A program made the translations under genes and the position numbers. A stretch of DNA of 64,000 nt from Indioceanicola profundi (GTDB lineage: Bacteria; Pseudomonadota; Alphaproteobacteria; Azospirillales; Azospirillaceae), in assembly GCF_003568845.1 (NCBI RefSeq), contig NZ_CP030127.1:527501-591500 (forward strand), in the 5' to 3' direction. Shown here piece by piece: positions 25,538-38,485 of the stretch (positions within the stretch are counted from its first letter, which is position 1; each line of letters begins with the position of its first letter). Below the pieces are notes generated by a model, which ran no database searches, was not told where the DNA came from, and worked only from the letters and a program-made list of their open reading frames with translations.

Positions 25538-25578
25538 TTGTCAAACACCTGAGGAATGGTTATAGGAAACCGGTGTCA
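25538..25578 (+). promoter_or_regulatory. promoter of the PL1 pectate lyase with island operator
   Basis: TTGTCA (25538-25543) and TATAGG (25561-25566) with an ideal 17-base spacer. The half-degenerate operator GGAAACCGGTGTCA (25565-25578) overlaps the -10 box and start site. It lies between the divergent TRAP operon and the lyase and may control both. Confidence 0.6.
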
Positions 25579-25687
25579 TAATCAAGAACCGGGTGCTCGG
25601 CGTCAGATAGTTGCGGGCACCGGCGGCGCATCGGCGAACGGCAAGAACATGCTGTCCCGCGCCTGCCAGGAAAATAGGGGAGGATTC

Positions 25688-26992
25688 GTGAAGAAGAGTC
25701 TACTGGCCGCTCTGTGCCTGACCGTTGCCGCCTTCGCCGGCACGTCCCTTCCGCAACCCGCTGCCGCGGCGGACCCGCTGGCCTTCCCCGGCGCCCAAGG
25801 CTGGGCCGCCGAAACCAAGGGCGGGCGCGGCGGGCGCATAATCAAGGTCACCACGCTGGCCGCCACTGGCCCCGGTTCCTTCGCCGAAGCCGTGGCCACC
25901 AAGGGACCGCGGATCGTCGTCTTCGAGGTGGGCGGGGTCATCGACCTGGAGCGCACCGCGCTGAAGATCACGGAGCCCTTCCTGACCATCGCCGGCCAGA
26001 CGGCTCCCTCGCCGGGAATCACCTTCATCCGCGGCGGGCTGGACATCGTCACCCATGACGTCATCGTCCAGCATATCCGCGTCCGCCCCGGCGAGGCGGA
26101 GCAGCCCAAGATGGGCGGGATGGACTTCGACGCGATCGCGACCCTTGGCGGCGCGTATAACGTCATCGTCGACCATTGCTCCCTGACCTGGGCGACCGAC
26201 GAGAACCTGTCCGCCAGCGGGCCGCGTGTGCAGGGCGACACGCCGGAGGAGTGGCGGCGGAACACATCCCACCGCATCACCTTCTCGAACAACATCATCG
26301 CCGAGGGGCTGGCCTATTCCTCCCATGCGAAGGGGGAGCATTCCAAGGGCTCCCTGATCCACGACAATGTCAGCGACATCCTGATCATCGGGAATCTTTA
26401 TTCCAACAACATGGAGCGTACCCCGCTGTTCAAGGGCGGCGTGCGCGGCGCTATCGTCAACAACCTGATCTACAATCCCGGCCAGAAGGCCATCCACTAT
26501 AATCTGATCGCCCAGGAATGGGGTGACCATCCCTTCCAACTCGGGCAGATGTCGGTGGTGGGCAATGTCATGCGCGCCGGCCCGGATACCTGGGACGGGC
26601 TGCCGCTGGTCATGGTCGGCGGCTCCGGCGATGTGGAACTGCACATGGCCGACAACCTCACCATGGACCGGCTTGGCCGGCCGTTGCCGGAATTCGGTCT
26701 CTACACCACGGCGCCGATCAAGGTGTCCCGCCTGGATAGCCCGCCGGTCTGGCCCGAGGGGCTGAAGGCGCTTCCGGCAGAGGCGGTGCAGGATGCCGTG
26801 ATCAAGAATGCCGGTGCCCGCCCGTGGGAGCGGGACCCCGTGGATGCCCGGATCGTGGCCGACGTGATCGAGGGCCGCGGGGCCATCATCGACAGCGAGA
26901 AGGAGGTCGGCGGCTATCCGGTGGTCAAGGAAACCCGTGCGCCCTTCGACCCGGCGGCATGGAACCTGGACGACATGACCCCGCGGAAATAG
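25688..26992 (+). CDS. pectate lyase, PL1 family, secreted
   Basis: 434-residue parallel beta-helix lyase. GTG 25688, five bases after GGGGAGGA, opens a signal peptide (VKKSLLAALCLTVAAFAG, cleavage after PAAAA). The mature part starts LAFPGAQGWAAETKGGRGG and shows the Ca-site and helix features VIVDHCSLTWATDENLS and RITFSNNIIAEGL typical of PL1 and related pectate lyases. It should cut polygalacturonate in the periplasm or outside. It is divergent from the TRAP operon with a shared operator, so product formation and uptake would be induced together. Confidence 0.87.
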   Translation: MKKSLLAALCLTVAAFAGTSLPQPAAAADPLAFPGAQGWAAETKGGRGGRIIKVTTLAATGPGSFAEAVATKGPRIVVFEVGGVIDLERTALKITEPFLTIAGQTAPSPGITFIRGGLDIVTHDVIVQHIRVRPGEAEQPKMGGMDFDAIATLGGAYNVIVDHCSLTWATDENLSASGPRVQGDTPEEWRRNTSHRITFSNNIIAEGLAYSSHAKGEHSKGSLIHDNVSDILIIGNLYSNNMERTPLFKGGVRGAIVNNLIYNPGQKAIHYNLIAQEWGDHPFQLGQMSVVGNVMRAGPDTWDGLPLVMVGGSGDVELHMADNLTMDRLGRPLPEFGLYTTAPIKVSRLDSPPVWPEGLKALPAEAVQDAVIKNAGARPWERDPVDARIVADVIEGRGAIIDSEKEVGGYPVVKETRAPFDPAAWNLDDMTPRK

Positions 26993-27646: not shown

Positions 27647-30600
27647 TCAGTCGCTTCCGGCGGGCACCGGAACCGGTCCCGCCACATGGCCGGCCCGTGT
27701 GGTCAGGCGGCGGATGACCACATAGAAGACGGGCGTGAACACCAGACCGAAGAAGGTGACGCCCAGCATGCCGAAGAACACGGCGGTGCCAATGGCCTGC
27801 CGCATCTCCGCACCGGCGCCGCTGGCGATCATCAGCGGCACCACGCCCAGGATGAAGGCGAAGCTGGTCATCAGGATCGGCCGCAGGCGCAGGCGGCAGG
27901 CCTCGATCACCGCATCGAAGCGATCGCGACCCTCCGCCTCCAGCTGGCGCGCGAACTCCACGATCAGGATGGCGTTCTTGGAGGCGAGGCCAACCAGCAC
28001 CACGAAGCCGATCTGGGTCAGGATGTTGTTGTCCATGCCCCGCATCATCACCCCGCCAATGGCCGAGAGAAGGCACATCGGCACGATCAGGATGATGGCG
28101 AAGGGCAGGGACCAGCTCTCATACTGCGCCGCCAGCACCAGGAAGACGAAGAAGACGCAGAGCGGGAAGATGTAGAGGGCGGAGTTGCCCGTATTCTTCT
28201 CCTGATAGCTCAGATCCGTCCATTCGATGCCGAAGCCCTCCGGCAGCGCGCCGTCCGCCAATCCCTCCATCGCCGCGATGGCCTGGCCCGAACTGAAGCC
28301 GGGCAAGGCATTGCCCTGAATTTCGGCTGCCGGGAACAGGTTGTAGCGGTGGACGCGGTCCGGCCCGGTCACGTAGCGGAAGTCCACGAAGGACCCCAAG
28401 GGAACCATGTCGCCATTGGCGTTCCGGGTTTCCAGCTTGGCGATGCCTTCCGGGTCCAGCCGGAACTGGCTGTCCGCCTGGGCGGTGACACGGAAGGTGC
28501 GGCCGAACAGGTTGGTATCGTTGACGTAGGCCGAGCCGAGATAAACCTCCAGCGTACCGAAGACATTCTCCACCGGCACTTCCAGCATCTGCGCCTTGAC
28601 CCGGTCAATGTCGAGATAGACCTGCGGAGCCTTGGCGCTGAACGGCGTGAAGACGTTGATCAGGCCAGGGACCCCATTGGCCGGAATGGCCAGACCCCAG
28701 GCGGCCTCCTCCAGTGCGGCCGGTCCGCGGCCCGCACGGTCCTGGACGCGCATGGCGAAGCCGCCGGACGTGCCGAGGCCGCTGACCGGCGGCGGCGGCA
28801 CCACGAAGATCTGCGCATCCGTAATGGTCATCATCTTGCCCTGGAGCGTCTGGAGCACATGGTCGGCCGTCAGGCCGTGCCGCTCCTCAAACGGGACCAT
28901 TGTGGCGAAGATGGCGCCGGCATTGGTTGCGATGGTGCGGGTAGCGCCGCTGAATCCGGCGAAGGTGGCGGTATGGGCCACGCCTTCCGTCTCCAGGATC
29001 ATCTGTTCCGCCCGCTTGATCACCGCGTCGGTCCTGGCGAGGCTGGTGCCCTCCGGCGTCTGGATGGCGACGATGACATAGCCCTGGTCCTGCTGCGGAA
29101 TGAACCCGCCCGGCACGCGGGTGAACAGGTATCCGGTCAGGCCGATCAGCCCGACATAGACCAGTAGCATCAGAACCGATGCCCGGCTGACCCGCCCGAC
29201 CAGCCGCCCATAGGCATCCGACATGCGGTCGAAGCCATTGTTGAAGCCGTTGATCAGCCGCTGCATCAGGCCCAGGCGCTGGGCGGCTTCCGCATGTGCG
29301 GTCTCATGCCCCTTCAGCAGCATGGCGCAGAGCGCCGGGCTGAGCGTCAGGGAGTTGAACATGGAGATGACGGTGGCGACCGCGATGGTCACCGCGAACT
29401 GCTGGTAGAACTGGCCCTGGATGCCTTCGATGAAGGCGGTCGGGATGAACACGGCCGAGAGGACGAGCGCGATGGAGACCAGCGCCCCGCCGACCTCGTC
29501 CATGGTGACCCGGGCCGCCTCCTTGGGGCTCAGTCCCTTGGCCAGGTTACGCTCCACATTCTCCACCACCACGATGGCGTCGTCCACGACGATGCCGACG
29601 GCCAGCACCAGCCCGAACAGGGTCAGGTTGTTGATGGTGAAGCCCAGCGCCGCCATCACGGCAAAGGTGCCGATCAGGCTGACCGGAATGGCGATGACAG
29701 GGATCAGGCTGGCGCGCCAGCGCTGAAGGAAGACCAGCACCACCAGCACCACCAGGAACACCGCCTCATAGATGGTGGTGAGCAGCGCGTCGATGGACTG
29801 TGCGATGAATTCGGTAGGATTGTAGATGATGCGGTATTCCAGCCCCGGCGGAAACGCCTCGGACAGTTCCGCAATGGCGGTCTGAAGCCGCTCCGCCGTG
29901 GCGAGCGCGTTCGAGCCGGGAAGCTGGCTCACCGCCAGCACCACCGCCGAGTTGCCGTCCAGGTAGGAGTTGGTGACGTAGTTCTGCGCTCCGAGCTCGA
30001 CCCGCGCCACGTCCGACAGGCGGACGACGCGGCCGTCCTCGCCGGTCTTGACGATGATGCTCTCGAACTGCTGCGGCTCCGTCAGCCGGCCCTGGAGGCT
30101 GAGGTTGAGCTGGAAGTCGCGGCCGAGATCCGTCGGCGGCTGGGCGAGCTGTCCGCCGGCCACCTGGACGTTCTGGGCCCGGATGGCGGTGACCACGTCC
30201 TGCGCCGTCATGTCCAGCTCGGCGATCCGCTGCGGGTCCAGCCAGACGCGCATGGAATAGTCGCGCGCGCCGAAAAGCTGGATATTGCCAACACCCTCGA
30301 TGCGGGCCAGCGTGTCCCGGACCTGCAGCAGGGCGTAGTTGGAAATGTAGAGCTGGTCGAGGCTGTTGTCCGGCGAGATCAGGTGGATGACCATCATCAG
30401 GTCGGGCGAGTTCTTGCGCGTCACCACGCCGAGACGCCGGACCTCCTCAGGCAGGCGAGGCTCCGCCACGGCCACGCGGTTCTGGACCAGCACCTGCGCC
30501 TCGTCCAGGTCGGTGCCAAGCTCGAAGGTGACGGTCAGGTTCATCTGCCCGTCGGAGGTGGACTGGGAGGACATGTAGAGCATGCCCTCGACCCCGTTCA

Positions 30601-30811
30601 CCTCCTGCTCGATGGGAGCGGCGACGGTGTCGGCCACGGTCTGCGCGTTGGCGCCCGGATACTGGGCGGTCACCACCACCGTGGGCGGAGCCACCTCCGG
30701 ATACTGGGAAACGGGAAGGGAGACGTAGCTGATCACGCCGACGACCAGCACGAAAATCGACAGGACGATGGCGAAGACCGGTCGGTCGATGAAGAAGCGT
30801 CCGATCCTCAT
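27647..30811 (-). CDS. RND multidrug efflux permease (HAE1/AcrB-MexF type)
   Basis: 1054-residue inner-membrane proton-driven exporter with twelve predicted membrane segments and two large periplasmic loops. The opening MRIGRFFIDRPVFAIVLSIF is the HAE1 signature. The proton-relay Asp pair is in LVLAVGIVVDDAIVVVENVE (TM4), and the second half repeats as VVLVGLASKNAILIVEFARQ. Its start overlaps the adaptor stop by four bases. No outer-membrane channel or TetR regulator is next to it, so it must use a TolC-like partner elsewhere. Confidence 0.95.
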   Translation of the reverse strand: MRIGRFFIDRPVFAIVLSIFVLVVGVISYVSLPVSQYPEVAPPTVVVTAQYPGANAQTVADTVAAPIEQEVNGVEGMLYMSSQSTSDGQMNLTVTFELGTDLDEAQVLVQNRVAVAEPRLPEEVRRLGVVTRKNSPDLMMVIHLISPDNSLDQLYISNYALLQVRDTLARIEGVGNIQLFGARDYSMRVWLDPQRIAELDMTAQDVVTAIRAQNVQVAGGQLAQPPTDLGRDFQLNLSLQGRLTEPQQFESIIVKTGEDGRVVRLSDVARVELGAQNYVTNSYLDGNSAVVLAVSQLPGSNALATAERLQTAIAELSEAFPPGLEYRIIYNPTEFIAQSIDALLTTIYEAVFLVVLVVLVFLQRWRASLIPVIAIPVSLIGTFAVMAALGFTINNLTLFGLVLAVGIVVDDAIVVVENVERNLAKGLSPKEAARVTMDEVGGALVSIALVLSAVFIPTAFIEGIQGQFYQQFAVTIAVATVISMFNSLTLSPALCAMLLKGHETAHAEAAQRLGLMQRLINGFNNGFDRMSDAYGRLVGRVSRASVLMLLVYVGLIGLTGYLFTRVPGGFIPQQDQGYVIVAIQTPEGTSLARTDAVIKRAEQMILETEGVAHTATFAGFSGATRTIATNAGAIFATMVPFEERHGLTADHVLQTLQGKMMTITDAQIFVVPPPPVSGLGTSGGFAMRVQDRAGRGPAALEEAAWGLAIPANGVPGLINVFTPFSAKAPQVYLDIDRVKAQMLEVPVENVFGTLEVYLGSAYVNDTNLFGRTFRVTAQADSQFRLDPEGIAKLETRNANGDMVPLGSFVDFRYVTGPDRVHRYNLFPAAEIQGNALPGFSSGQAIAAMEGLADGALPEGFGIEWTDLSYQEKNTGNSALYIFPLCVFFVFLVLAAQYESWSLPFAIILIVPMCLLSAIGGVMMRGMDNNILTQIGFVVLVGLASKNAILIVEFARQLEAEGRDRFDAVIEACRLRLRPILMTSFAFILGVVPLMIASGAGAEMRQAIGTAVFFGMLGVTFFGLVFTPVFYVVIRRLTTRAGHVAGPVPVPAGSD

Positions 30812-32004
30812 TGTACGGCCTCCGCATTACGGACCGGGGCGCCGGCATCGGCCAGCGGCTCCTCAACCGGGGTCACCGGCGCGCCGGGGCGGACCCGCTG
30901 AAGGCCGGAGACGATCACCCGCTCGGTCGGCTCCAGCCCGCTACGGACCACGCGCAGCCCATCGACCAGGGGTCCGATCTCCACCGGCCGGTACTGCGGT
31001 ATCCCGTCATCGCCGACCACAAAGACATAGCGCCGGGTCTGGTCGGTACCGATGGCGCTGTCGGGCAGCATCAGGGCATCATACTGTCCGCGGCCAAGCA
31101 GCCGGATGCGGGCGAAAAGTCCGGGGGTGAACAGCAGGTCGGGATTGCTGAAGGTCGCCCGGGCGCGGATCGTGCCGGTGGAACGGTCGAGCTGGTTGTC
31201 CAGGAAGTCCATCCGGCCCTCATGCTCGAACGCCGTCTCGTCCGGCAGGGACAGCACCACCCTGCTCTGGTTTTCCCGCGCGCTGGGCTGCGTGCCAGCC
31301 TGCGCCATGCGGACATAGCGGAGGAAGGCTGCCTGGTCGGCGTCGAAATAGATGTGGATGGGGTCCAGCGAGACGATGGTGGTCAGCAGGGTGCTGGCCG
31401 TCGTGCCGCCGGAAATCAGATTGCCCTCACTGACCAGATGCCGGCCGACCCGGCCGGAGATCGGCGCCGTCACCCGGGTGAATTCCAGATTCAGCTCCGC
31501 CTGGCGGACTTCGGCCCTTGCGGCCATGACGGCGGCCTGGGCGGCGGCGCGCTCCTGCTCCCGCTGGTCCAGCACCGTTTCGGACACGGCCTGCGACCGG
31601 CGGAGATCGCTTGCGCGGGTCAGTTCCCGTGTCGCCAGTTCAAGGCGGGACTCCGCCTCCGCCAGCCCGGCATGGGCGGCGGCCAATTCCGCCTCGAAGG
31701 GGCGGGGATCGATGACGAACAGGAGATCGCCCTTGCGGACGATGTCGCCGTCACGGAAGTTCACGCTGTCGAGGAAGCCGCCGACGCGCGGCCGGACCTC
31801 GACCTCGTTCACGGCGGCGAAGCGGCCGGTATATTCGTCCCACTCCGCGACCGTTTTCTGCAGCGGCGTGCTGACGACGACCTGCGGCAGGGGTGGACTT
31901 CCGTCCGCTCTGCTCTGCGATGCCGGATCGCAGGCGGACAGGAGAAGGACGCCCAGGGCCGCAAAGGCCCAGGACAGATGTCCGATGGAACGCAACTGTG
32001 CCAT
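30808..32004 (-). CDS. RND efflux periplasmic adaptor (MexE/AcrA type)
   Basis: 398-residue membrane-fusion lipoprotein linking the RND pump to the outer-membrane channel. Lipobox LLLSAC, then a lipoyl half (EVRPRVGGFLDSVNFRDGDIV), an alpha-hairpin rich in Ala/Glu/Arg, the second lipoyl half (APISGRVGRHLVSEG) and a beta-barrel domain. ATG 32004 follows AAGGGG; ATG 32028 would add eight residues. First gene of the two-gene pump operon. Confidence 0.92.
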   Translation of the reverse strand: MAQLRSIGHLSWAFAALGVLLLSACDPASQSRADGSPPLPQVVVSTPLQKTVAEWDEYTGRFAAVNEVEVRPRVGGFLDSVNFRDGDIVRKGDLLFVIDPRPFEAELAAAHAGLAEAESRLELATRELTRASDLRRSQAVSETVLDQREQERAAAQAAVMAARAEVRQAELNLEFTRVTAPISGRVGRHLVSEGNLISGGTTASTLLTTIVSLDPIHIYFDADQAAFLRYVRMAQAGTQPSARENQSRVVLSLPDETAFEHEGRMDFLDNQLDRSTGTIRARATFSNPDLLFTPGLFARIRLLGRGQYDALMLPDSAIGTDQTRRYVFVVGDDGIPQYRPVEIGPLVDGLRVVRSGLEPTERVIVSGLQRVRPGAPVTPVEEPLADAGAPVRNAEAVQ

Positions 32005-32207
32005 TGGCAGCCCCTTTTGAATGCGCACGACCGGTCGTTCCCTGACCGGCGCAAGGTGTTCTGCCGCCTCACGATGGGGCGGGGCTTTTTGAAAATTTTT
32101 AAAAGTCGCTTCGCGACGGTACTTCAGACCAATGCCGGGCAGCGCTACCCAACTCTACTGCATGTCGGGAGCAAAAGCCGCCACAGCATTGGTGTTAAAA
32201 TTCGGCG

Positions 32208-33033: not shown

Positions 33034-34566
33034 TCAATGGTTTCCGGCTGCCATCCGCCTCAGGCCCGCCAGAAGATCCGGGTCCTGGATGACACGGGGC
33101 ACTTTGTGCTGTCCGCCCAGCTTGCCGCGTCGGCGCATCCATTCGGTGAAGGTGCCAGGCGGGGCCGGCTCTACCAGGGGCGCCGCCATGCCAAAGCCGC
33201 CGGCCCGGTGATCCTTGTAGTCCGCGTTCTGGCGGGACAGACTTTGATCCAACGCCGATGCGAAGCCGGCGAGCATGTCTTCTTGGGGTGGACCTCCCCC
33301 GAACTCTACCACCCAGACATGGCCGCCCAGGCTGCCGGGCCGGTCGGACAGAACGGCGCCGACCGAGAAGTCGACTACCGTGGCGCCGCTTTCCGCCGCT
33401 GCCTCCGCCACAGCCTGCTCGATCTCCTCCCCGATCAGATGTTCGCCGAAGGCGGACAGGGTATAAGAGGTGCGGCCTGTGACCAGGATTCGGGGCGGCC
33501 GGGTCTCCACGAACCGCACCGTGTCCCCCAGTATGTAGGACCAGAGCCCGGCATTGCTGGACAGAACGATGGCGTAGTTCACGCCGGTCTCCACATTCTC
33601 CAGCCAGAATCGGCGGGGAGAGGGGCTGTCCAATTCCACCACCGGTACGAATTCGAAGAACAGGCCGTTGTCGGCCATCAGACGCAGCCCTTCTCCGGTG
33701 CCGCGGTCGGCCAGCGCCACAAACCCCTCGGACGCCGGATACACCTCCCGCAGTTCGGCGTGGCTTCCCTCCAGCATCCATTCGAAGGCAGGGCGGTAGG
33801 GGGAGAAGTTCACGCCGCCATGCACCAGCAGCTCCAAATTCGGATAGAAATCCACCGCTCGCCGTCCGCGCCCAGGGGCCAGTTCCGCCAACCGATCGAA
33901 ATAGAGCAGCAGCCAACTTGCCGTGCCGCCGATGGTGCGGATGTCGAGCTCAAGGGAGGCGCTGCCCATCCGGTCCACCTTCTCCGCCCAGTCGGAGAGG
34001 CGGGCAAGGTCGGGCGGCGGGTAATAGAAGGGCCGCGCCCAAGCAGGAATTTCGTTGGCGGCAATGCCGGACAGGTCGCCAGCCAGAACGCCGGGAGCGA
34101 GCTGCTCCATCGCCGTGCTGCCGCCCAGCATGAAGTTCAGCCCGCCCAGCACCCGGCTGTAGGGGCGGGCGCGGAGATGGTGGACGATGATGTCCAGCGC
34201 CGCCCGGCGGTTCGCCCGTACCATCTCCCGGCTGACGGGGATGTATTTGGTCCGGCCTGTCGTGGTGCCGGAGGTGGCGGCCAGATAGGGGATGTGGCCG
34301 GGCCAGCTCACATCCTTCAGGACCGGAAATACGGCCTTCCACCAGCCTTCCCACATCTCCTCATACCGGCGCAGGGGAACCGCCGACTGGAAGTCCTCGA
34401 CGGTGCGGATACGGGCGAAGTCATGATCGCGGCCGAAGCGCGTCTGTGCGGCCCGTTGCAGCAGGCACATCAACTGGCGACGTTGCGCTTCCACCGGGTC
34501 CTGGCGGTCCAGCGCCCGCCCGCGCTGGCGGGCGTAGAGACGGAACAGGGGTGTCGCGTCCAGCAT
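33034..34566 (-). CDS. GH3-family acyl-acid amido synthetase-like protein
   Basis: 510-residue ANL-type adenylating enzyme of the GH3 (auxin-responsive promoter) family, known in plants for joining amino acids to indole-acetate or jasmonate. The ATP loop is AATSGTTTGRTKYIPVS; YPASEGFVALADRG and SYILGDTVRFVETRP match the GH3 nucleotide and hinge motifs, and a C-terminal domain follows. Bacterial GH3 proteins are poorly characterised and the substrate is unknown. It starts 13 bases after a penicillin-acylase-type gene on the same strand, so the two are almost surely cotranscribed. Confidence 0.85.
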   Translation of the reverse strand: MLDATPLFRLYARQRGRALDRQDPVEAQRRQLMCLLQRAAQTRFGRDHDFARIRTVEDFQSAVPLRRYEEMWEGWWKAVFPVLKDVSWPGHIPYLAATSGTTTGRTKYIPVSREMVRANRRAALDIIVHHLRARPYSRVLGGLNFMLGGSTAMEQLAPGVLAGDLSGIAANEIPAWARPFYYPPPDLARLSDWAEKVDRMGSASLELDIRTIGGTASWLLLYFDRLAELAPGRGRRAVDFYPNLELLVHGGVNFSPYRPAFEWMLEGSHAELREVYPASEGFVALADRGTGEGLRLMADNGLFFEFVPVVELDSPSPRRFWLENVETGVNYAIVLSSNAGLWSYILGDTVRFVETRPPRILVTGRTSYTLSAFGEHLIGEEIEQAVAEAAAESGATVVDFSVGAVLSDRPGSLGGHVWVVEFGGGPPQEDMLAGFASALDQSLSRQNADYKDHRAGGFGMAAPLVEPAPPGTFTEWMRRRGKLGGQHKVPRVIQDPDLLAGLRRMAAGNH

Positions 34567-34579
34567 GGGCAGCCTCGTC

Positions 34580-36853
34580 TCAGGCTCCGGCCGGGCGCAG
34601 AACGGTTAGATGCGGCATCTCCCGCTCCGCCGTGTCGGGACGTAGCGGCAGGCGGATATAGCGCCCCTCCTGCCATAATGCGAACTGGTCGAAGAAGGTG
34701 CTGCTCCCCAGGAACCCGTCCTGCCCGCCAAGAAGGCAGAAATCATTGCAGTCCGGGTCCGCCAGGTCGCTGATATGGCGGGCGACAGCGCCAAGCTTGA
34801 CGGCGTGCCTGCCGCTGGAAAAGCCGTGGGCGGTCTTCATCAGGGTCTCGTTGCTGCCGGCGGCAGGGACATCGGCGAAGCGGTAGCGCTTTCCCACCAG
34901 CGGCAGGGCGCCCAGCGGGTGGCGCAGGCGAAGACGGTGCATCCGTCCCCAGTTCTGGTGCCGGTCCAGCGCCTTGCAGGTCCGCTGGACCGCGGGCTTC
35001 ATGGCGCGCGCCAGTCGGGCGGCTGACAGGCCGGCCAGATCCTGACGCAGCAGCGCCCAGGGCTCCCAGGCATGGGTATAGATGTCCAGATCCTCCTTGC
35101 CGTGCAGTTCGCGCAGCAGGTGATAGACCAGCAGCTCCAGCGCCACCGGCGCCTCCGCCTCCACTGTGAAGTGGCCGTCCCAGTCGCGCAGCAGCCCGAC
35201 CAGCCGGTCGCGCGCCGGGTCCGTCGCGGCAGCCCCCCCGGTGGCCAGTGCAAGCAGGCGGTCGCGTATGTCGATAGCGGAGCGCATCAGCACGTCGCGC
35301 TGGGCCTTGCGCAGAACCAGCCCATCCACCTTGCCCCCTCCAGTCAGCTCATGCAGCCGCGCCACCCTGTCGTCGGGGGAGAAGAACCAGCCCACCGCCA
35401 TCCACTCCAGCCCCTTCGGCCGGTCGTTGGCGGAGGCGACGACGCCCCCGTCCGGATTGATGCAATGGGGCAGGTTGCGGACACTGGCCATCCGCTCCCA
35501 ATGCTCATCCGCCTCGGCGCCCAGCACCAGGTCGGGCGGCGGCTTGGTCGGGCGGCGCGGCAGGTGGGCGGCCATGCAGGTGCCGACCCGGCCCTGTTGG
35601 TCCGCATAGATCATAGTCAGCGCCGGCACGGCATAGCCCTCCAACGCCGAAAGGAACCCCTCCCAGTCCGCGGCCCGGCTGACCGAGAGCAGTGAGGTGA
35701 GTTCATCGCTGACCCGGTGGCCGACCCAGCGCAAGGCAAGGACGCGCCCCAGTCGGGTGGGGAGCAGCGGAGCGTCAGAAATGATCGGCTCATCCCCCCG
35801 GCTGCGTACAGTGACGGCGACAGGCTTGCCGCCGCGGACCCGGATCACCTCCCGGCGCTCCTGCAGCGGCGTTCCCGCCGGCACCTCCACCAGTTCGCTG
35901 CTGGCGGCATGCAGGCTGGTGCCGCCCCAAGCGATCCGGGGATTGCGGCCCAGCCCGATCACCGGCACGCCAGGAATCATCAGCCCCACCGCGTTGTGCC
36001 CGGGACTCTTCATCCCCGCCAGCAGCCAGAGGTTCGGCAGGGTGATGCCGAGATGGGGATCGCTGGCGATCATGGCGCCGCCGCCAGCCGTCCGCCCCGC
36101 CGCCACGGCTACGGAGTTGCTGCCGCTCCGGCTGAACAATCCGAGCAGGGCGGGCATGGAGTCCAGCAATGCCGGGTTCAGCCCGGGCAGGCCACCACCG
36201 GCGAAGCTCGGAACGCCGATGGCATCCTCCCCAACCATGCGCTCCCACAGCTTCAGCCAGTCGGGCCGGCCGGCCAGTTTCAGAAGTGGAACCCAGACCT
36301 TCCAGGTGAAATCGGTGGCGGCCAGCCGGCTCAACGCCACCAGATCCTCCATGCTCCAGGGCTCCGGCCGGAAATCCAGCAGCCGGAATTCCTCCGGCAG
36401 CTCGGGCGCGTTGGCGATCACATGATTGATGCCGTCGCGGAAGCCTTCCAGCCACTCCCGGGTCTCGGCCGGCATGCCGGCCATGATGCCGGGCAGTGCG
36501 GCGGGAACATTCAGGATGCGCAGCATGTGATCGACCTGCACCGCTGCCGGTCCCAGAACTTCCGCCAGCCGGCCCCAGGCCGCCCGTCGCATGAATTCGA
36601 TCTGGGTCAGCCGCAGATGGGCATGCACCACGCCCAGCCCCACCGCGAGATCGCGGTCATGCTCCGCCAGGACATAGGGAATCTGGTGGTTGTTCCAGCG
36701 GATGCGCACCGGCGCTTGCACGGGAAGACCGGCCGCCGGAATGGCGGACAGCCTGTCCTGGAGGGAAAGGGCCTTGCGTCGGGTGCGGAGTGCGCGCGCG
36801 GTGATGCGGGCTCCCAGTCCCAGCAGGCCGAGAAGCGTGCGTCGATCGGGCAT
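34580..36853 (-). CDS. penicillin acylase/amidase family Ntn-hydrolase
   Basis: 757-residue member of the penicillin amidase (S45) family, which includes acylases of beta-lactams and acyl-homoserine lactones. The autocatalytic cleavage site and nucleophile are Ser245 in FSRSGSNSVAVAAGRT, separating an alpha chain from a beta chain. ASDPHLGITLPNLW follows in the beta chain, and a late Asn/Arg region is seen in AGSNETLMKTAHGFSSG. The N-terminus (MPDRRTLLGLLGLGA) is a weak export or anchor signal. ATG 36853 is preferred to an in-frame start at 36925. It is followed by the GH3 gene. Confidence 0.87.
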   Translation of the reverse strand: MPDRRTLLGLLGLGARITARALRTRRKALSLQDRLSAIPAAGLPVQAPVRIRWNNHQIPYVLAEHDRDLAVGLGVVHAHLRLTQIEFMRRAAWGRLAEVLGPAAVQVDHMLRILNVPAALPGIMAGMPAETREWLEGFRDGINHVIANAPELPEEFRLLDFRPEPWSMEDLVALSRLAATDFTWKVWVPLLKLAGRPDWLKLWERMVGEDAIGVPSFAGGGLPGLNPALLDSMPALLGLFSRSGSNSVAVAAGRTAGGGAMIASDPHLGITLPNLWLLAGMKSPGHNAVGLMIPGVPVIGLGRNPRIAWGGTSLHAASSELVEVPAGTPLQERREVIRVRGGKPVAVTVRSRGDEPIISDAPLLPTRLGRVLALRWVGHRVSDELTSLLSVSRAADWEGFLSALEGYAVPALTMIYADQQGRVGTCMAAHLPRRPTKPPPDLVLGAEADEHWERMASVRNLPHCINPDGGVVASANDRPKGLEWMAVGWFFSPDDRVARLHELTGGGKVDGLVLRKAQRDVLMRSAIDIRDRLLALATGGAAATDPARDRLVGLLRDWDGHFTVEAEAPVALELLVYHLLRELHGKEDLDIYTHAWEPWALLRQDLAGLSAARLARAMKPAVQRTCKALDRHQNWGRMHRLRLRHPLGALPLVGKRYRFADVPAAGSNETLMKTAHGFSSGRHAVKLGAVARHISDLADPDCNDFCLLGGQDGFLGSSTFFDQFALWQEGRYIRLPLRPDTAEREMPHLTVLRPAGA

Positions 36854-36988: not shown

Positions 36989-38485
36989 TCAGCCCTCGGC
37001 GCGCTTCAGCGGCAGGGGCACGAAGCTGCGGGCCTCACCGCGGCGGACCAGCAGCAGGGCGTTGCGGCGGCCCTGCTTCTCCGCCTCCTTCACCGCCTCG
37101 CCGACCTGCTTCGGGTCGGTGACGGACTGCCCGTTGACCGTCTCGATCACATCGCCGGGGCGAAGCTGCTCCAGCGTCCGGTCGACTTCCGTCACCACCA
37201 CGCCCTCGGCGTCGTCGGCGAGGGAGAGGCGCTGACGCCAGCGCTGATCCAGGCGGGAGAGCTTGAGACCGGCCACGTCGGCTTCGGCGCCGCCGCGGCC
37301 GGGAAGAGCGGCCTGCTCGCTGCCCGGAGGAGCGCCGACGGCGACCTCGATGGTGTGCTCACGCCCTTCGCGCCAGACCTTCATCTCCAATTCCGTGCCG
37401 GGGGCGACGCTGCCCACGGCGCGGGCCAGGGCGCGGGTGTCCTCCACAGCCTGCCCGTCCACCGTGCGGACCACGTCGCCAGCCTTCAGGCCGGCCTCCT
37501 CCGCCGGGCTGTCCGGATTGACGGAGGCGATAAGTGCGCCCTTGTCCTCCTTCAGGCCCAGCCCCTCGGCCAGATCGGGGGTGAGACCCTGGAGGGACAC
37601 GCCGAGCCAGCCGCGCTCCACCCGGCCAGTAGCCTTCAGCTGCTCGATCACCGGCTTGGCGAGATTTGCCGGAATGGCGAAGCCGATGCCGACCGAGCCG
37701 CCATTGGGGCTGAAGATCGCGGTGTTGATGCCGATCACCTCGCCGGCCGCATTGAAGGTCGGGCCGCCGGAATTGCCGCGGTTGATGCTGGCGTCGATCT
37801 GGATGTAGTCGTCATAGGCATTGTTGCTGATCGCGCGGCCGCGGGCGGAGACGATGCCAGCCGTGACCGTTCCGCCCAGGCCGAACGGATTGCCGACGGC
37901 GATCACCCAGTCGCCGGGGCGCATCTTGTCGCTGTCGCCGAAGGTCAGGTGCGGCAGCGGCTTGTCAGCCTCCACCTTCAGTACGGCCAGATCGGTGCGG
38001 TCGTCCTGGCCGACAATGGTGGCCGCACGCTCCGTCCCGTCGGCGAAGGTCACGGTGACGTCGTCGGCACCCTCGATCACATGGCGGTTGGTGACGACAT
38101 AGCCGTCGGCATCAATAACGAAGCCACTGCCCAAAGACCGGGCCTGCTCACCGCGCGGGCCGCCCTCGGGCAGGCCGGGGACGCCCGGCATGCCGAAGCG
38201 GCGCAGGAACTCCTCCATCTGCGGCGGCAGTTCGCGGGCGATCCTGTCCGGCATCTCCGCGGCGCGGGCGGCCGTGATGGTGACGACGGCCGGGCTCACA
38301 TGCTCCACCAGGCCGGCGAAGCTGCCGGGCAGCCCGGCGACGGGCGCCGGGGCGATGGCGGCGCTGCTATTGCCGTTCGCGGCGTCTGCCGGATAGGTGG
38401 ACAGGCCGGCGCCGAGTGCCGTGCCGGCCAACAGCGCCACGGCCAGGCTGCGGCGGACGGCGGTGGGGATGCGGCGAAGACTCAT
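36989..38485 (-). CDS. degP: periplasmic serine protease, DegP/HtrA family
   Basis: 498-residue exported protease/chaperone. A signal peptide covers residues 1-36. The catalytic triad is His135 (VTNRHVIEG), Asp165 (DDRTDLAVLKV) and Ser239 (NRGNSGGPTFN). Two PDZ domains follow (about 270-370 and 400-490). It degrades or refolds damaged envelope proteins. It is divergent from an OmpR-type two-component pair, an arrangement that suggests the pair controls it as part of an envelope-stress response; that is inference. Confidence 0.93.
   Translation of the reverse strand: MSLRRIPTAVRRSLAVALLAGTALGAGLSTYPADAANGNSSAAIAPAPVAGLPGSFAGLVEHVSPAVVTITAARAAEMPDRIARELPPQMEEFLRRFGMPGVPGLPEGGPRGEQARSLGSGFVIDADGYVVTNRHVIEGADDVTVTFADGTERAATIVGQDDRTDLAVLKVEADKPLPHLTFGDSDKMRPGDWVIAVGNPFGLGGTVTAGIVSARGRAISNNAYDDYIQIDASINRGNSGGPTFNAAGEVIGINTAIFSPNGGSVGIGFAIPANLAKPVIEQLKATGRVERGWLGVSLQGLTPDLAEGLGLKEDKGALIASVNPDSPAEEAGLKAGDVVRTVDGQAVEDTRALARAVGSVAPGTELEMKVWREGREHTIEVAVGAPPGSEQAALPGRGGAEADVAGLKLSRLDQRWRQRLSLADDAEGVVVTEVDRTLEQLRPGDVIETVNGQSVTDPKQVGEAVKEAEKQGRRNALLLVRRGEARSFVPLPLKRAEG

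What the first reader, a model, noticed from the sequence alone, without database searches (positions are those of the whole stretch)
33034..36853. Amide hydrolase and amide synthetase in one operon
A penicillin-acylase-type Ntn hydrolase (Ser245 in GSN) is followed 13 bases later by a GH3-type acyl-amido synthetase. One family cuts N-acyl amides such as acyl-homoserine lactones; the other joins carboxylic acids to amines or amino acids. Together they could swap the amine of an acyl signal or plant hormone conjugate (IAA- or jasmonate-amino acids), plausible for a plant associate. I know of no described system of this pair.
Basis: partly seen in the sequence, partly recalled or inferred. Interest (0 to 1): 0.62.

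Follow-up and report, generated by a model that had tools for sequence, protein, structure and literature searches.

The report
Conserved amide-maker and amide-cutter gene pair
Two neighbouring bacterial genes, one that probably joins fatty acids to amino acids and one that probably cuts such bonds, form a widely conserved pair whose joint job, likely the turnover of amino-acid lipids, seems not to have been described.

Summary
In detail: two minus-strand genes 13 bp apart encode a penicillin-acylase-type Ntn hydrolase (34580-36853, Ser245 = first beta-chain residue) and a GH3 amido synthetase (33034-34566). The pair is real. In a class survey of 385 genomes, 47 carry the GH3 and 57 this Ntn subfamily; 40 carry both, 31 of them adjacent (two judged from contig ends). 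One adjacent pair lies in another class.

The GH3 is not plant-hormone-like. It scores 610 bits against NCBI's model of OlsH, an ATP-dependent lyso-ornithine-lipid synthetase reported in 2025 (cut-off 620), and keeps its three motifs. The genome also has olsB-olsA, so ornithine lipid probably does not need the GH3. Best reading: a synthesis/hydrolysis (salvage or exchange) module for long-chain N-acyl amino acids or aminolipids.

Extra: 53 of 78 Ntn relatives look like envelope lipoproteins, while the window's group has no lipobox and an Arg-rich N-terminus; a dienelactone-hydrolase-like gene recurs as a third neighbour.

Function is inferred, not shown.

The parts
33034..34566 (-). GH3-type acyl-amido synthetase, 510 aa, OlsH-like; second gene of the pair
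   Evidence: PF03321/PF23571/PF23572; NF052613 OlsH 610.4 bits (cut-off 620)
34246..34275 (-). GH3 nucleotide-binding motif 1, T98-SGTTTGRT-K107; Ser99 corresponds to OlsH Ser115, which is needed for activity
   Evidence: sequence; OlsH motif from PMC12493201 sections 6-7; S99, G100, T101, K107 invariant in the 26 aligned sequences
33727..33744 (-). GH3 motif 2, VYPASE (residues 275-280)
   Evidence: OlsH TYPCSE
33523..33549 (-). GH3 motif 3, GLWSYILGD (residues 340-348)
   Evidence: OlsH GMWSHLIGD
34580..36853 (-). Penicillin-acylase-type Ntn amidohydrolase, 757 aa; first gene of the pair
   Evidence: model m8d71859c213f pLDDT 79.8, best Foldseek PDB hits D-succinylase 7ea4/7eby, query TM 0.76-0.78
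36119..36121 (-). Ser245, predicted N-terminal nucleophile of the beta chain after autocleavage
   Evidence: Aligns with beta-chain residue 1 of 4hst_B, 1ghd_B and PvdQ 2wyb_B; invariant in 17 of 17 aligned sequences
36053..36055 (-). His267 (beta-chain position 23, DPH motif)
   Evidence: Invariant in A2; aligns with DPH of 4hst_B
35426..35428 (-). Asn476 in the ASAN motif, likely oxyanion-hole Asn of S45 amidases (role recalled)
   Evidence: Invariant in A2; aligns with TANN of 4hst_B
36764..36844 (-). N-terminal Arg-rich helical segment (residues 4-30) without lipobox, at the place where 53 of 78 relatives carry a lipoprotein-like signal
   Evidence: (helix 4-23)

Best explanation
The two genes are a dedicated module for making and breaking long-chain N-acyl amino acids (amino-acid lipids). 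The GH3 enzyme activates a free fatty acid with ATP and joins it to an amino acid, as OlsH does in making lyso-ornithine lipid. The Ntn enzyme cleaves itself to expose Ser245 and hydrolyses the amide bond of the same class of compound. Because the genome also has the usual olsB-olsA pair for ornithine lipid, the module most likely handles a second N-acyl amino acid, or recycles released acyl chains by rebuilding or exchanging amide lipids. Shown by sequence: the families, active-site residues, conservation of the pair, presence of olsBA. Inferred: substrates, that both act on one compound class, direction of flux, and location of the hydrolase.
For: GH3: NF052613 OlsH 610.4 bits, just below the 620 cut-off; all three OlsH motifs have counterparts. 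OlsH uses free fatty acid, ATP, Mg2+ and ornithine, and S115A is dead (PMC12493201 section 7). Hydrolase: full Penicil_amidase domain, catalytic residues invariant, nearest solved fold D-succinylase, described as acting on D-amino acids. Linkage: in the window's family 6 of 82 genomes (its own included) have the GH3 and all 6 have the Ntn directly upstream of the main copy; 46 of 68 informative loci out of 80; class survey of 385: 47 GH3+, 57 Ntn+, 39 with both by score (Fisher p 1.4e-31) and 40 when a contig-edge fragment in G303 is counted (p 5e-33), 31 of the 40 adjacent; a pair with overlapping genes in another class, G559. A recurrent third neighbour is an alpha/beta hydrolase, and OlsH's own partner OlsI is an alpha/beta-hydrolase-superfamily O-acyltransferase. 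GH3 loci without a seen Ntn often have a fatty-acid-desaturase-family neighbour, 9 of 34 versus 0 of 46 (one member checked, PF00487). Own olsB-olsA.
Against: No activity has been measured for either protein. A synthetase and hydrolase for one bond in one cell could be a futile cycle. 7 of 47 GH3+ genomes show no Ntn of this subfamily, 18 Ntn+ genomes lack the GH3, and 22 of 68 informative loci lack an adjacent Ntn, so neither strictly needs the other. In most relatives the Ntn looks like an exported lipoprotein, in another compartment from the GH3. The substrate class rests on homology to one enzyme across a curated cut-off that 0 of 385 class genomes passed.
Confidence: 0.5

Rival explanations
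1. Salvage of outside amides: the Ntn enzyme, in most relatives an envelope lipoprotein, releases fatty acids from N-acyl amides of other organisms; the fatty acid enters the cell and the GH3 conjugates it to an amino acid, for storage, detoxification or lipid synthesis.
For: 53 of 78 Ntn relatives have a lipobox-like N-terminus, many of them beside a GH3; OlsH needs neither ACP nor CoA as acyl donor.
Against: The window's own Ntn and its 19-row group have no lipobox and a positively charged segment (mean +2.6 versus -1.3), which argues against export; no transporter family is a constant neighbour.
Confidence: 0.2
2. The Ntn enzyme works as an acyltransferase or a finishing enzyme: the GH3 makes an N-acyl amino acid that is an intermediate, and the Ntn moves the acyl group to another acceptor or removes it after assembly or export, as PvdQ does for pyoverdine precursors (recalled).
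For: Penicillin acylases can transfer acyl groups (recalled); tight spacing, median estimated gap 6 bp over 44 loci.
Against: No conserved set of biosynthetic genes surrounds the pair; the PvdQ model scores 38.8 against 950.
Confidence: 0.12
3. One reading: amine exchange on acyl-homoserine lactones or plant-hormone conjugates.
For: Fold relatives include AHL acylases MacQ and PvdQ and plant GH3s.
Against: No luxI match in the genome; luxI in 9 of 52 GH3+ versus 11 of 28 GH3- genomes; GH3 far closer to OlsH than to JAR1.
Confidence: 0.06
4. Neighbours without a joint function: two independent enzymes kept together by descent.
For: 9 of 40 class genomes with both do not show them adjacent (one of these undecidable at contig ends); neither is always with the other.
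Against: Adjacency kept at 37-57% Ntn identity across many families and in a second class while other neighbours change.
Confidence: 0.07

Closest known systems
OlsH-OlsI ornithine-lipid pathway of Singulisphaera acidiphila (PMC12493201)
   Same: GH3 enzyme with the same three nucleotide-binding motifs; near full-length match to NF052613; in some relatives an alpha/beta hydrolase gene is adjacent
   Different: Window GH3 is below the OlsH cut-off (610 vs 620); partner is an Ntn amidohydrolase; the genome has OlsBA, whereas the paper reports no OlsB or OlsF in Singulisphaera; no alpha/beta hydrolase next to the window pair
Penicillin-acylase family S45 (D-succinylase 7eby, cephalosporin acylase 4hst, AHL acylases PvdQ/MacQ)
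   Same: Whole domain, Ser at the beta-chain start, DPH and AN motifs, fold
   Different: 14-23% identity in the Foldseek alignments listed; own sequence cluster (549 bits and above versus paralogues at 430 and below); no substrate known
Plant GH3 conjugases (JAR1, GH3.5, GH3.12)
   Same: Fold family and motif types
   Different: Sequence match weak (best E 2.4e-12, best stretch residues 254-495); no reason found to expect hormone substrates
OlsB-OlsA ornithine lipid synthesis
   Same: Also forms N-acyl amino-acid lipids; present in the same genome
   Different: Unrelated enzymes, acyltransferases rather than ATP-dependent ligase plus hydrolase; elsewhere in the genome

Membership tests
OlsH lyso-ornithine lipid synthetase | NCBIfam equivalog cut-off (NF052613, 620 bits) | tested here: not met
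   610.4 bits; 0 of 385 class genomes and 0 of 398 phylum genomes pass
OlsH lyso-ornithine lipid synthetase | Three GH3 nucleotide-binding motifs with the essential motif-1 Ser | tested here: met
OlsH lyso-ornithine lipid synthetase | OlsI-type alpha/beta hydrolase in the operon | tested here: not met
   Window neighbours are a DegP-like protease and an RND pump; a DLH-type hydrolase lies elsewhere in the genome. Homology of that protein to OlsI could not be tested
OlsH lyso-ornithine lipid synthetase | ATP-dependent N-acylation of ornithine | not testable with these tools
   Needs assay
GH3 family (PF03321) | GH3 N, middle and C domains above cut-offs | tested here: met
   89, 52.5 and 79.3 bits versus 23.6
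Penicillin acylase (S45, PF01804) Ntn hydrolase | Full domain with Ser at the start of the beta chain | tested here: met
   456 bits, Ser245 = beta1, invariant in 17 of 17
Penicillin acylase (S45, PF01804) Ntn hydrolase | Autocatalytic cleavage and amidase activity | not testable with these tools
   Needs expression
AHL acylase PvdQ | NCBIfam equivalog cut-off (NF051460, 950 bits) | tested here: not met
   38.8 bits
Exported lipoprotein (most members of this Ntn subfamily) | Lipobox in the N-terminal 45 residues | tested here: not met
   Absent in the window protein; lipobox-like in 53 of 78 rows by a rule of my own

The most novel reading that the evidence does not exclude
A closed make-and-break cycle for amino-acid lipids, distinct from OlsBA, OlsF and OlsHI: a GH3 ligase and a self-cleaving amidase that together swap acyl chains or amino-acid headgroups of membrane lipids, with a dienelactone-hydrolase-like protein as an occasional third part (acting on the ester-bound chain), in two layouts: hydrolase as an envelope lipoprotein away from the ligase, or, as in this window, held at the inner face next to it.
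Probability: 0.28. Interest if true: 0.7.

Novelty: new variant of a known kind. Interest (0 to 1): 0.5.

Why it matters
The paper on OlsH (2025) ties a bacterial GH3 enzyme to ornithine lipid and leaves the homologues outside planctomycetes open. A partner hydrolase kept next to them in many lineages gives a direct handle on what these GH3s make, and suggests that N-acyl amino acids are actively turned over in Alphaproteobacteria. It makes a specific experiment possible: delete or assay the pair and look for amide lipids.

Tried and rejected
Rejected or corrected: (1) AHL link: luxI has no match in the own genome and is not enriched. (2) Plant-hormone link: no support beyond fold. (3) GH3 needed for ornithine lipid here: unlikely, since olsB-olsA is present and OlsB-type PF13444 is in 78 of 80 genomes. 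(4) Direction of the lipobox change: one search put lipoproteins first, but two of its seven outgroup rows (L203, L207) were wrong-frame ORFs. The clean rerun puts no-lipobox rows nearest the root with weak support, and the other-class pair also shows no lipobox by eye, so direction is left open. (5) Same-strand neighbours of Ntn genes away from GH3: of nine scanned, five had a Pfam family (Macro domain, gamma-glutamyltranspeptidase, flavin reductase, Dus, DLH) and four had none; only DLH recurs. (6) No sigma-70-like site (0 versus 0.4 expected) and no Rfam match around the pair. (7) Plasmids: no Ntn match at E <= 1e-40; six GH3 hits, 30-35% identical, five Bacteroidota and one Vibrio.

Rows dropped before counts: class GH3 survey, 57 genomes matched at E <= 0.001; 10 with at most 91 bits were dropped and 47 with 482 bits or more kept. 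Class Ntn survey, 173 genomes matched at E <= 1e-60; the 116 whose best match was 430 bits or less were dropped as paralogues. DLH, 29 of 80 genomes matched at E <= 1e-30 (24 of 52 GH3+, 5 of 28 GH3-, p 0.015); at 200 bits or more 22 and 3 (p 0.005). The phylum searches were run with strict limits (1e-140 and 1e-30). The 28 GH3- genomes were chosen by me, 11 of them Ntn-positive.

Weaknesses: genome searches score only the top 2-3 candidates per genome for these class queries, so misses are possible; G303 was such a case and was corrected. The 80 named loci were picked with an alignment of six paired sequences (A1), which favours pairs; the class survey does not have that bias. Counts are not corrected for relatedness. 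The named loci and the surveys overlap: 12 identical pairs among the 35 survey loci compared, among them G018 = Azospirillum halopraeferens. Trees are 'quick' ones. The lipobox rule is my own pattern, not a trained predictor; the 'paired' label includes one row (L149) whose adjacency was not shown. Gaps are estimated from alignment ends. Some scripts after read the gapped alignment row of the same protein instead of the plain one (harmless); this spoiled a residue print-out, which was ignored; residue numbers come.
Full report
WHAT IS THERE. On the minus strand, an Ntn amidohydrolase gene (34580-36853, 757 aa) is followed after 13 bases by a GH3 gene (33034-34566, 510 aa). Pfam finds Penicil_amidase over profile positions 1-673 of 675 (456 bits) and the three GH3 domains. 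Upstream on the same strand lies a DegP-like protease (36989-38485); downstream, after about 1 kb, an RND efflux pair (27647-32028). No sigma-70-like promoter and no Rfam family was found around the pair, so operon limits rest on spacing only.

ACTIVE SITES. Ser245 aligns with residue 1 of solved beta chains. Ser245, Asn246, His267 (beta position 23) and Asn476 are invariant in all 17 aligned sequences. The AlphaFold model (pLDDT 79.8, pTM 0.86) matches D-succinylase (query TM 0.76-0.78), cephalosporin acylases and MacQ; a 2024 survey describes D-succinylase as acting on D-amino acids (PMC11241749, passages only). The GH3 keeps TSGTTTGRTK, VYPASE and GLWSYILGD, counterparts of OlsH TSGTTQGATK, TYPCSE and GMWSHLIGD (PMC12493201 sections 6 and 7). 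The Ser of motif 1, essential in OlsH, is Ser99 here and invariant in the 26 aligned sequences.

WHAT THE GH3 IS. NCBIfam gives one hit, OlsH lyso-ornithine lipid synthetase, 610.4 bits over nearly the whole protein, cut-off 620. OlsH makes N-acyl ornithine from free fatty acid, ornithine and ATP; the paper notes homologues in Alphaproteobacteria and says that those outside planctomycetes may use other amino acids (PMC12493201; I read the abstract, sections 6, 7, the first part of 9, and passages). No genome of 385 in the class or 398 in the phylum passes the OlsH cut-off, so I do not file it as OlsH. The same genome has adjacent olsB and olsA genes (311.6 of 320 and 279.4 of 300 bits). OlsB-type PF13444 is in 50 of 52 GH3+ and 28 of 28 GH3- genomes tested. 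Ornithine lipid is therefore probably made without the GH3.

HOW CONSERVED THE PAIR IS. In the window's family 6 of 82 genomes (its own included) have the GH3, and in all 6 the Ntn is directly upstream of the main copy; one of them has a further GH3 without it (L008). Of 80 loci from titled records, 44 have the Ntn directly upstream (median estimated gap 6 bp, 37 of 44 within 35 bp), 2 have it tail-to-tail, 22 lack it (18 with at least 2.4 kb on both sides, 4 with it upstream only), and 12 are uninformative. In a class sample of 385 genomes, GH3 is in 47 (10 weak matches dropped) and the Ntn subfamily in 57 (549 bits and above; the next paralogues are at 430 and below); 39 have both, 8 GH3 only, 18 Ntn only, 320 neither, Fisher p 1.4e-31, not corrected for relatedness. 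On checking, one GH3-only genome (G303) has an Ntn fragment at a contig edge right upstream of its GH3, which makes 40, 7, 18, 320, p 5e-33. Of the 40, 29 are adjacent by coordinates, G161 is adjacent but split over contigs, and G303 is the fragment: 31. Eight have the two apart and one (G275) cannot be decided. In a phylum sample of 398 genomes, the 4 GH3+ genomes (three of them also in the class sample) all have the Ntn adjacent. The fourth (G559) is labelled as another class, with overlapping genes at 48% and 39% identity; a fifth genome has the Ntn alone. By ORF clustering no other gene family is as constant a neighbour in the 80 loci. On a GH3 tree of 69 rows plus 2 outgroup rows, paired and unpaired rows need 10 changes against 18.8 in shuffles; one 12-row clade that includes the Myxococcota and Bdellovibrionota MAGs is all unpaired.

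A THIRD GENE. A dienelactone-hydrolase-like alpha/beta hydrolase starts 22 and 24 bp after the GH3 in L013 and L048 and, by its likely ATG, about 190 bp after it in L065; it lies divergently next to the Ntn in A. halopraeferens (L023/L175) and downstream of an Ntn away from any GH3 in G228 (L168). In genomes not used to build its profile it is adjacent to the GH3 in 4 of 20 GH3+ genomes that have it: G284, G261, and G257 and G352 (one genus, no Ntn). Assuming about 1 in 1000 by chance, p is about 1e-6 counting three genera. The window's genome has one, but elsewhere (C1:1952412, next to a COQ7-domain gene). [quoted passage not shown] whether the two are homologous could not be tested.

WHERE THE HYDROLASE SITS. 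By a pattern of my own, 53 of 78 Ntn rows begin with a lipoprotein-like signal; 25 do not. Nineteen of the 25, the window's among them, group together with full SH-aLRT support in the tree. The 14 residues before the domain carry mean charge +2.6 in this group and -1.3 in lipobox rows. In the cleaner rooted tree the group splits near the root, so I cannot say which state is older. Positive residues after the helix suggest that the window's protein is not exported (inference). Thus the pair seems to exist in two layouts: hydrolase outside, or hydrolase on the same side as the ligase.

FUNCTION. Best reading, confidence 0.5: a make-and-break module for long-chain N-acyl amino acids or aminolipids. 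For: OlsH-like ligase, amidase fold, conserved pairing, alpha/beta-hydrolase link, and a fatty-acid-desaturase-family neighbour in 9 of 34 GH3 loci without a seen Ntn and 0 of 46 with it (only L076 was checked with Pfam). Against: no assay, possible futile cycle, partners not obligate, two compartments in most relatives. Rivals are given in their field.

NOVELTY. Paper searches 'GH3 auxin-responsive promoter' + 'penicillin acylase' (0), 'ornithine lipid' + acylase + hydrolysis + N-acyl (0), 'bacterial GH3' and related terms (2), 'GH3' + 'penicillin amidase' (3, listing only, titles unrelated) and a looser search (60 papers, 10 listed, titles and starts of abstracts seen) showed no description of this pair. 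The main text of the OlsH paper does not contain 'acylase' or 'amidase'. Only open-licence papers are held, so this is not proof. I rate it a new variant of a known kind.

Noticed in passing
L013:11568-12467, L048:11603-12628, L065:11733-12656, L190, L191, L192, L184, L168, L175: A dienelactone-hydrolase-like alpha/beta hydrolase recurs beside the GH3 or the Ntn gene and may be the third part of the system.
   Followed up: partly
L012, L027, L034, L053, L054, L062, L067, L068, L076: GH3 loci without a seen Ntn gene, several from delta-type or Oligoflexia MAGs, have a fatty-acid-desaturase-family gene downstream (only L076 confirmed, PF00487).
   Followed up: partly
L014:1-3200 (= L101); G276:C1:153092-156125: Tandem duplicated OlsH-like GH3 genes.
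   Followed up: no
L008, L009, L010 (genome G056): One relative has a second full GH3 without an adjacent Ntn partner and a diverged 657-codon open frame matching GH3 in two pieces.
   Followed up: no
L181:5739-7555 (G000:C1 about 2967.7-2969.6 kb): Adjacent olsB and olsA genes of the window's genome score just below both NCBIfam equivalog cut-offs.
   Followed up: yes
window 25556-26992 +: Protein similar to pectate lyase PelZ (444 bits, cut-off 840) near the pair; the one plant-polymer hint among the ten window genes scanned.
   Followed up: no
L151:5737-6276 and L155:8649-10496: Ntn genes away from any GH3: one overlaps a downstream Macro-domain gene, one lies within 90 bp of an upstream gamma-glutamyltranspeptidase gene.
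   Followed up: no
G303 and G436: Two GH3+ genomes without a PF13444 OlsB-type match; there the GH3 could be the only N-acyl-amino-acid enzyme.
   Followed up: no
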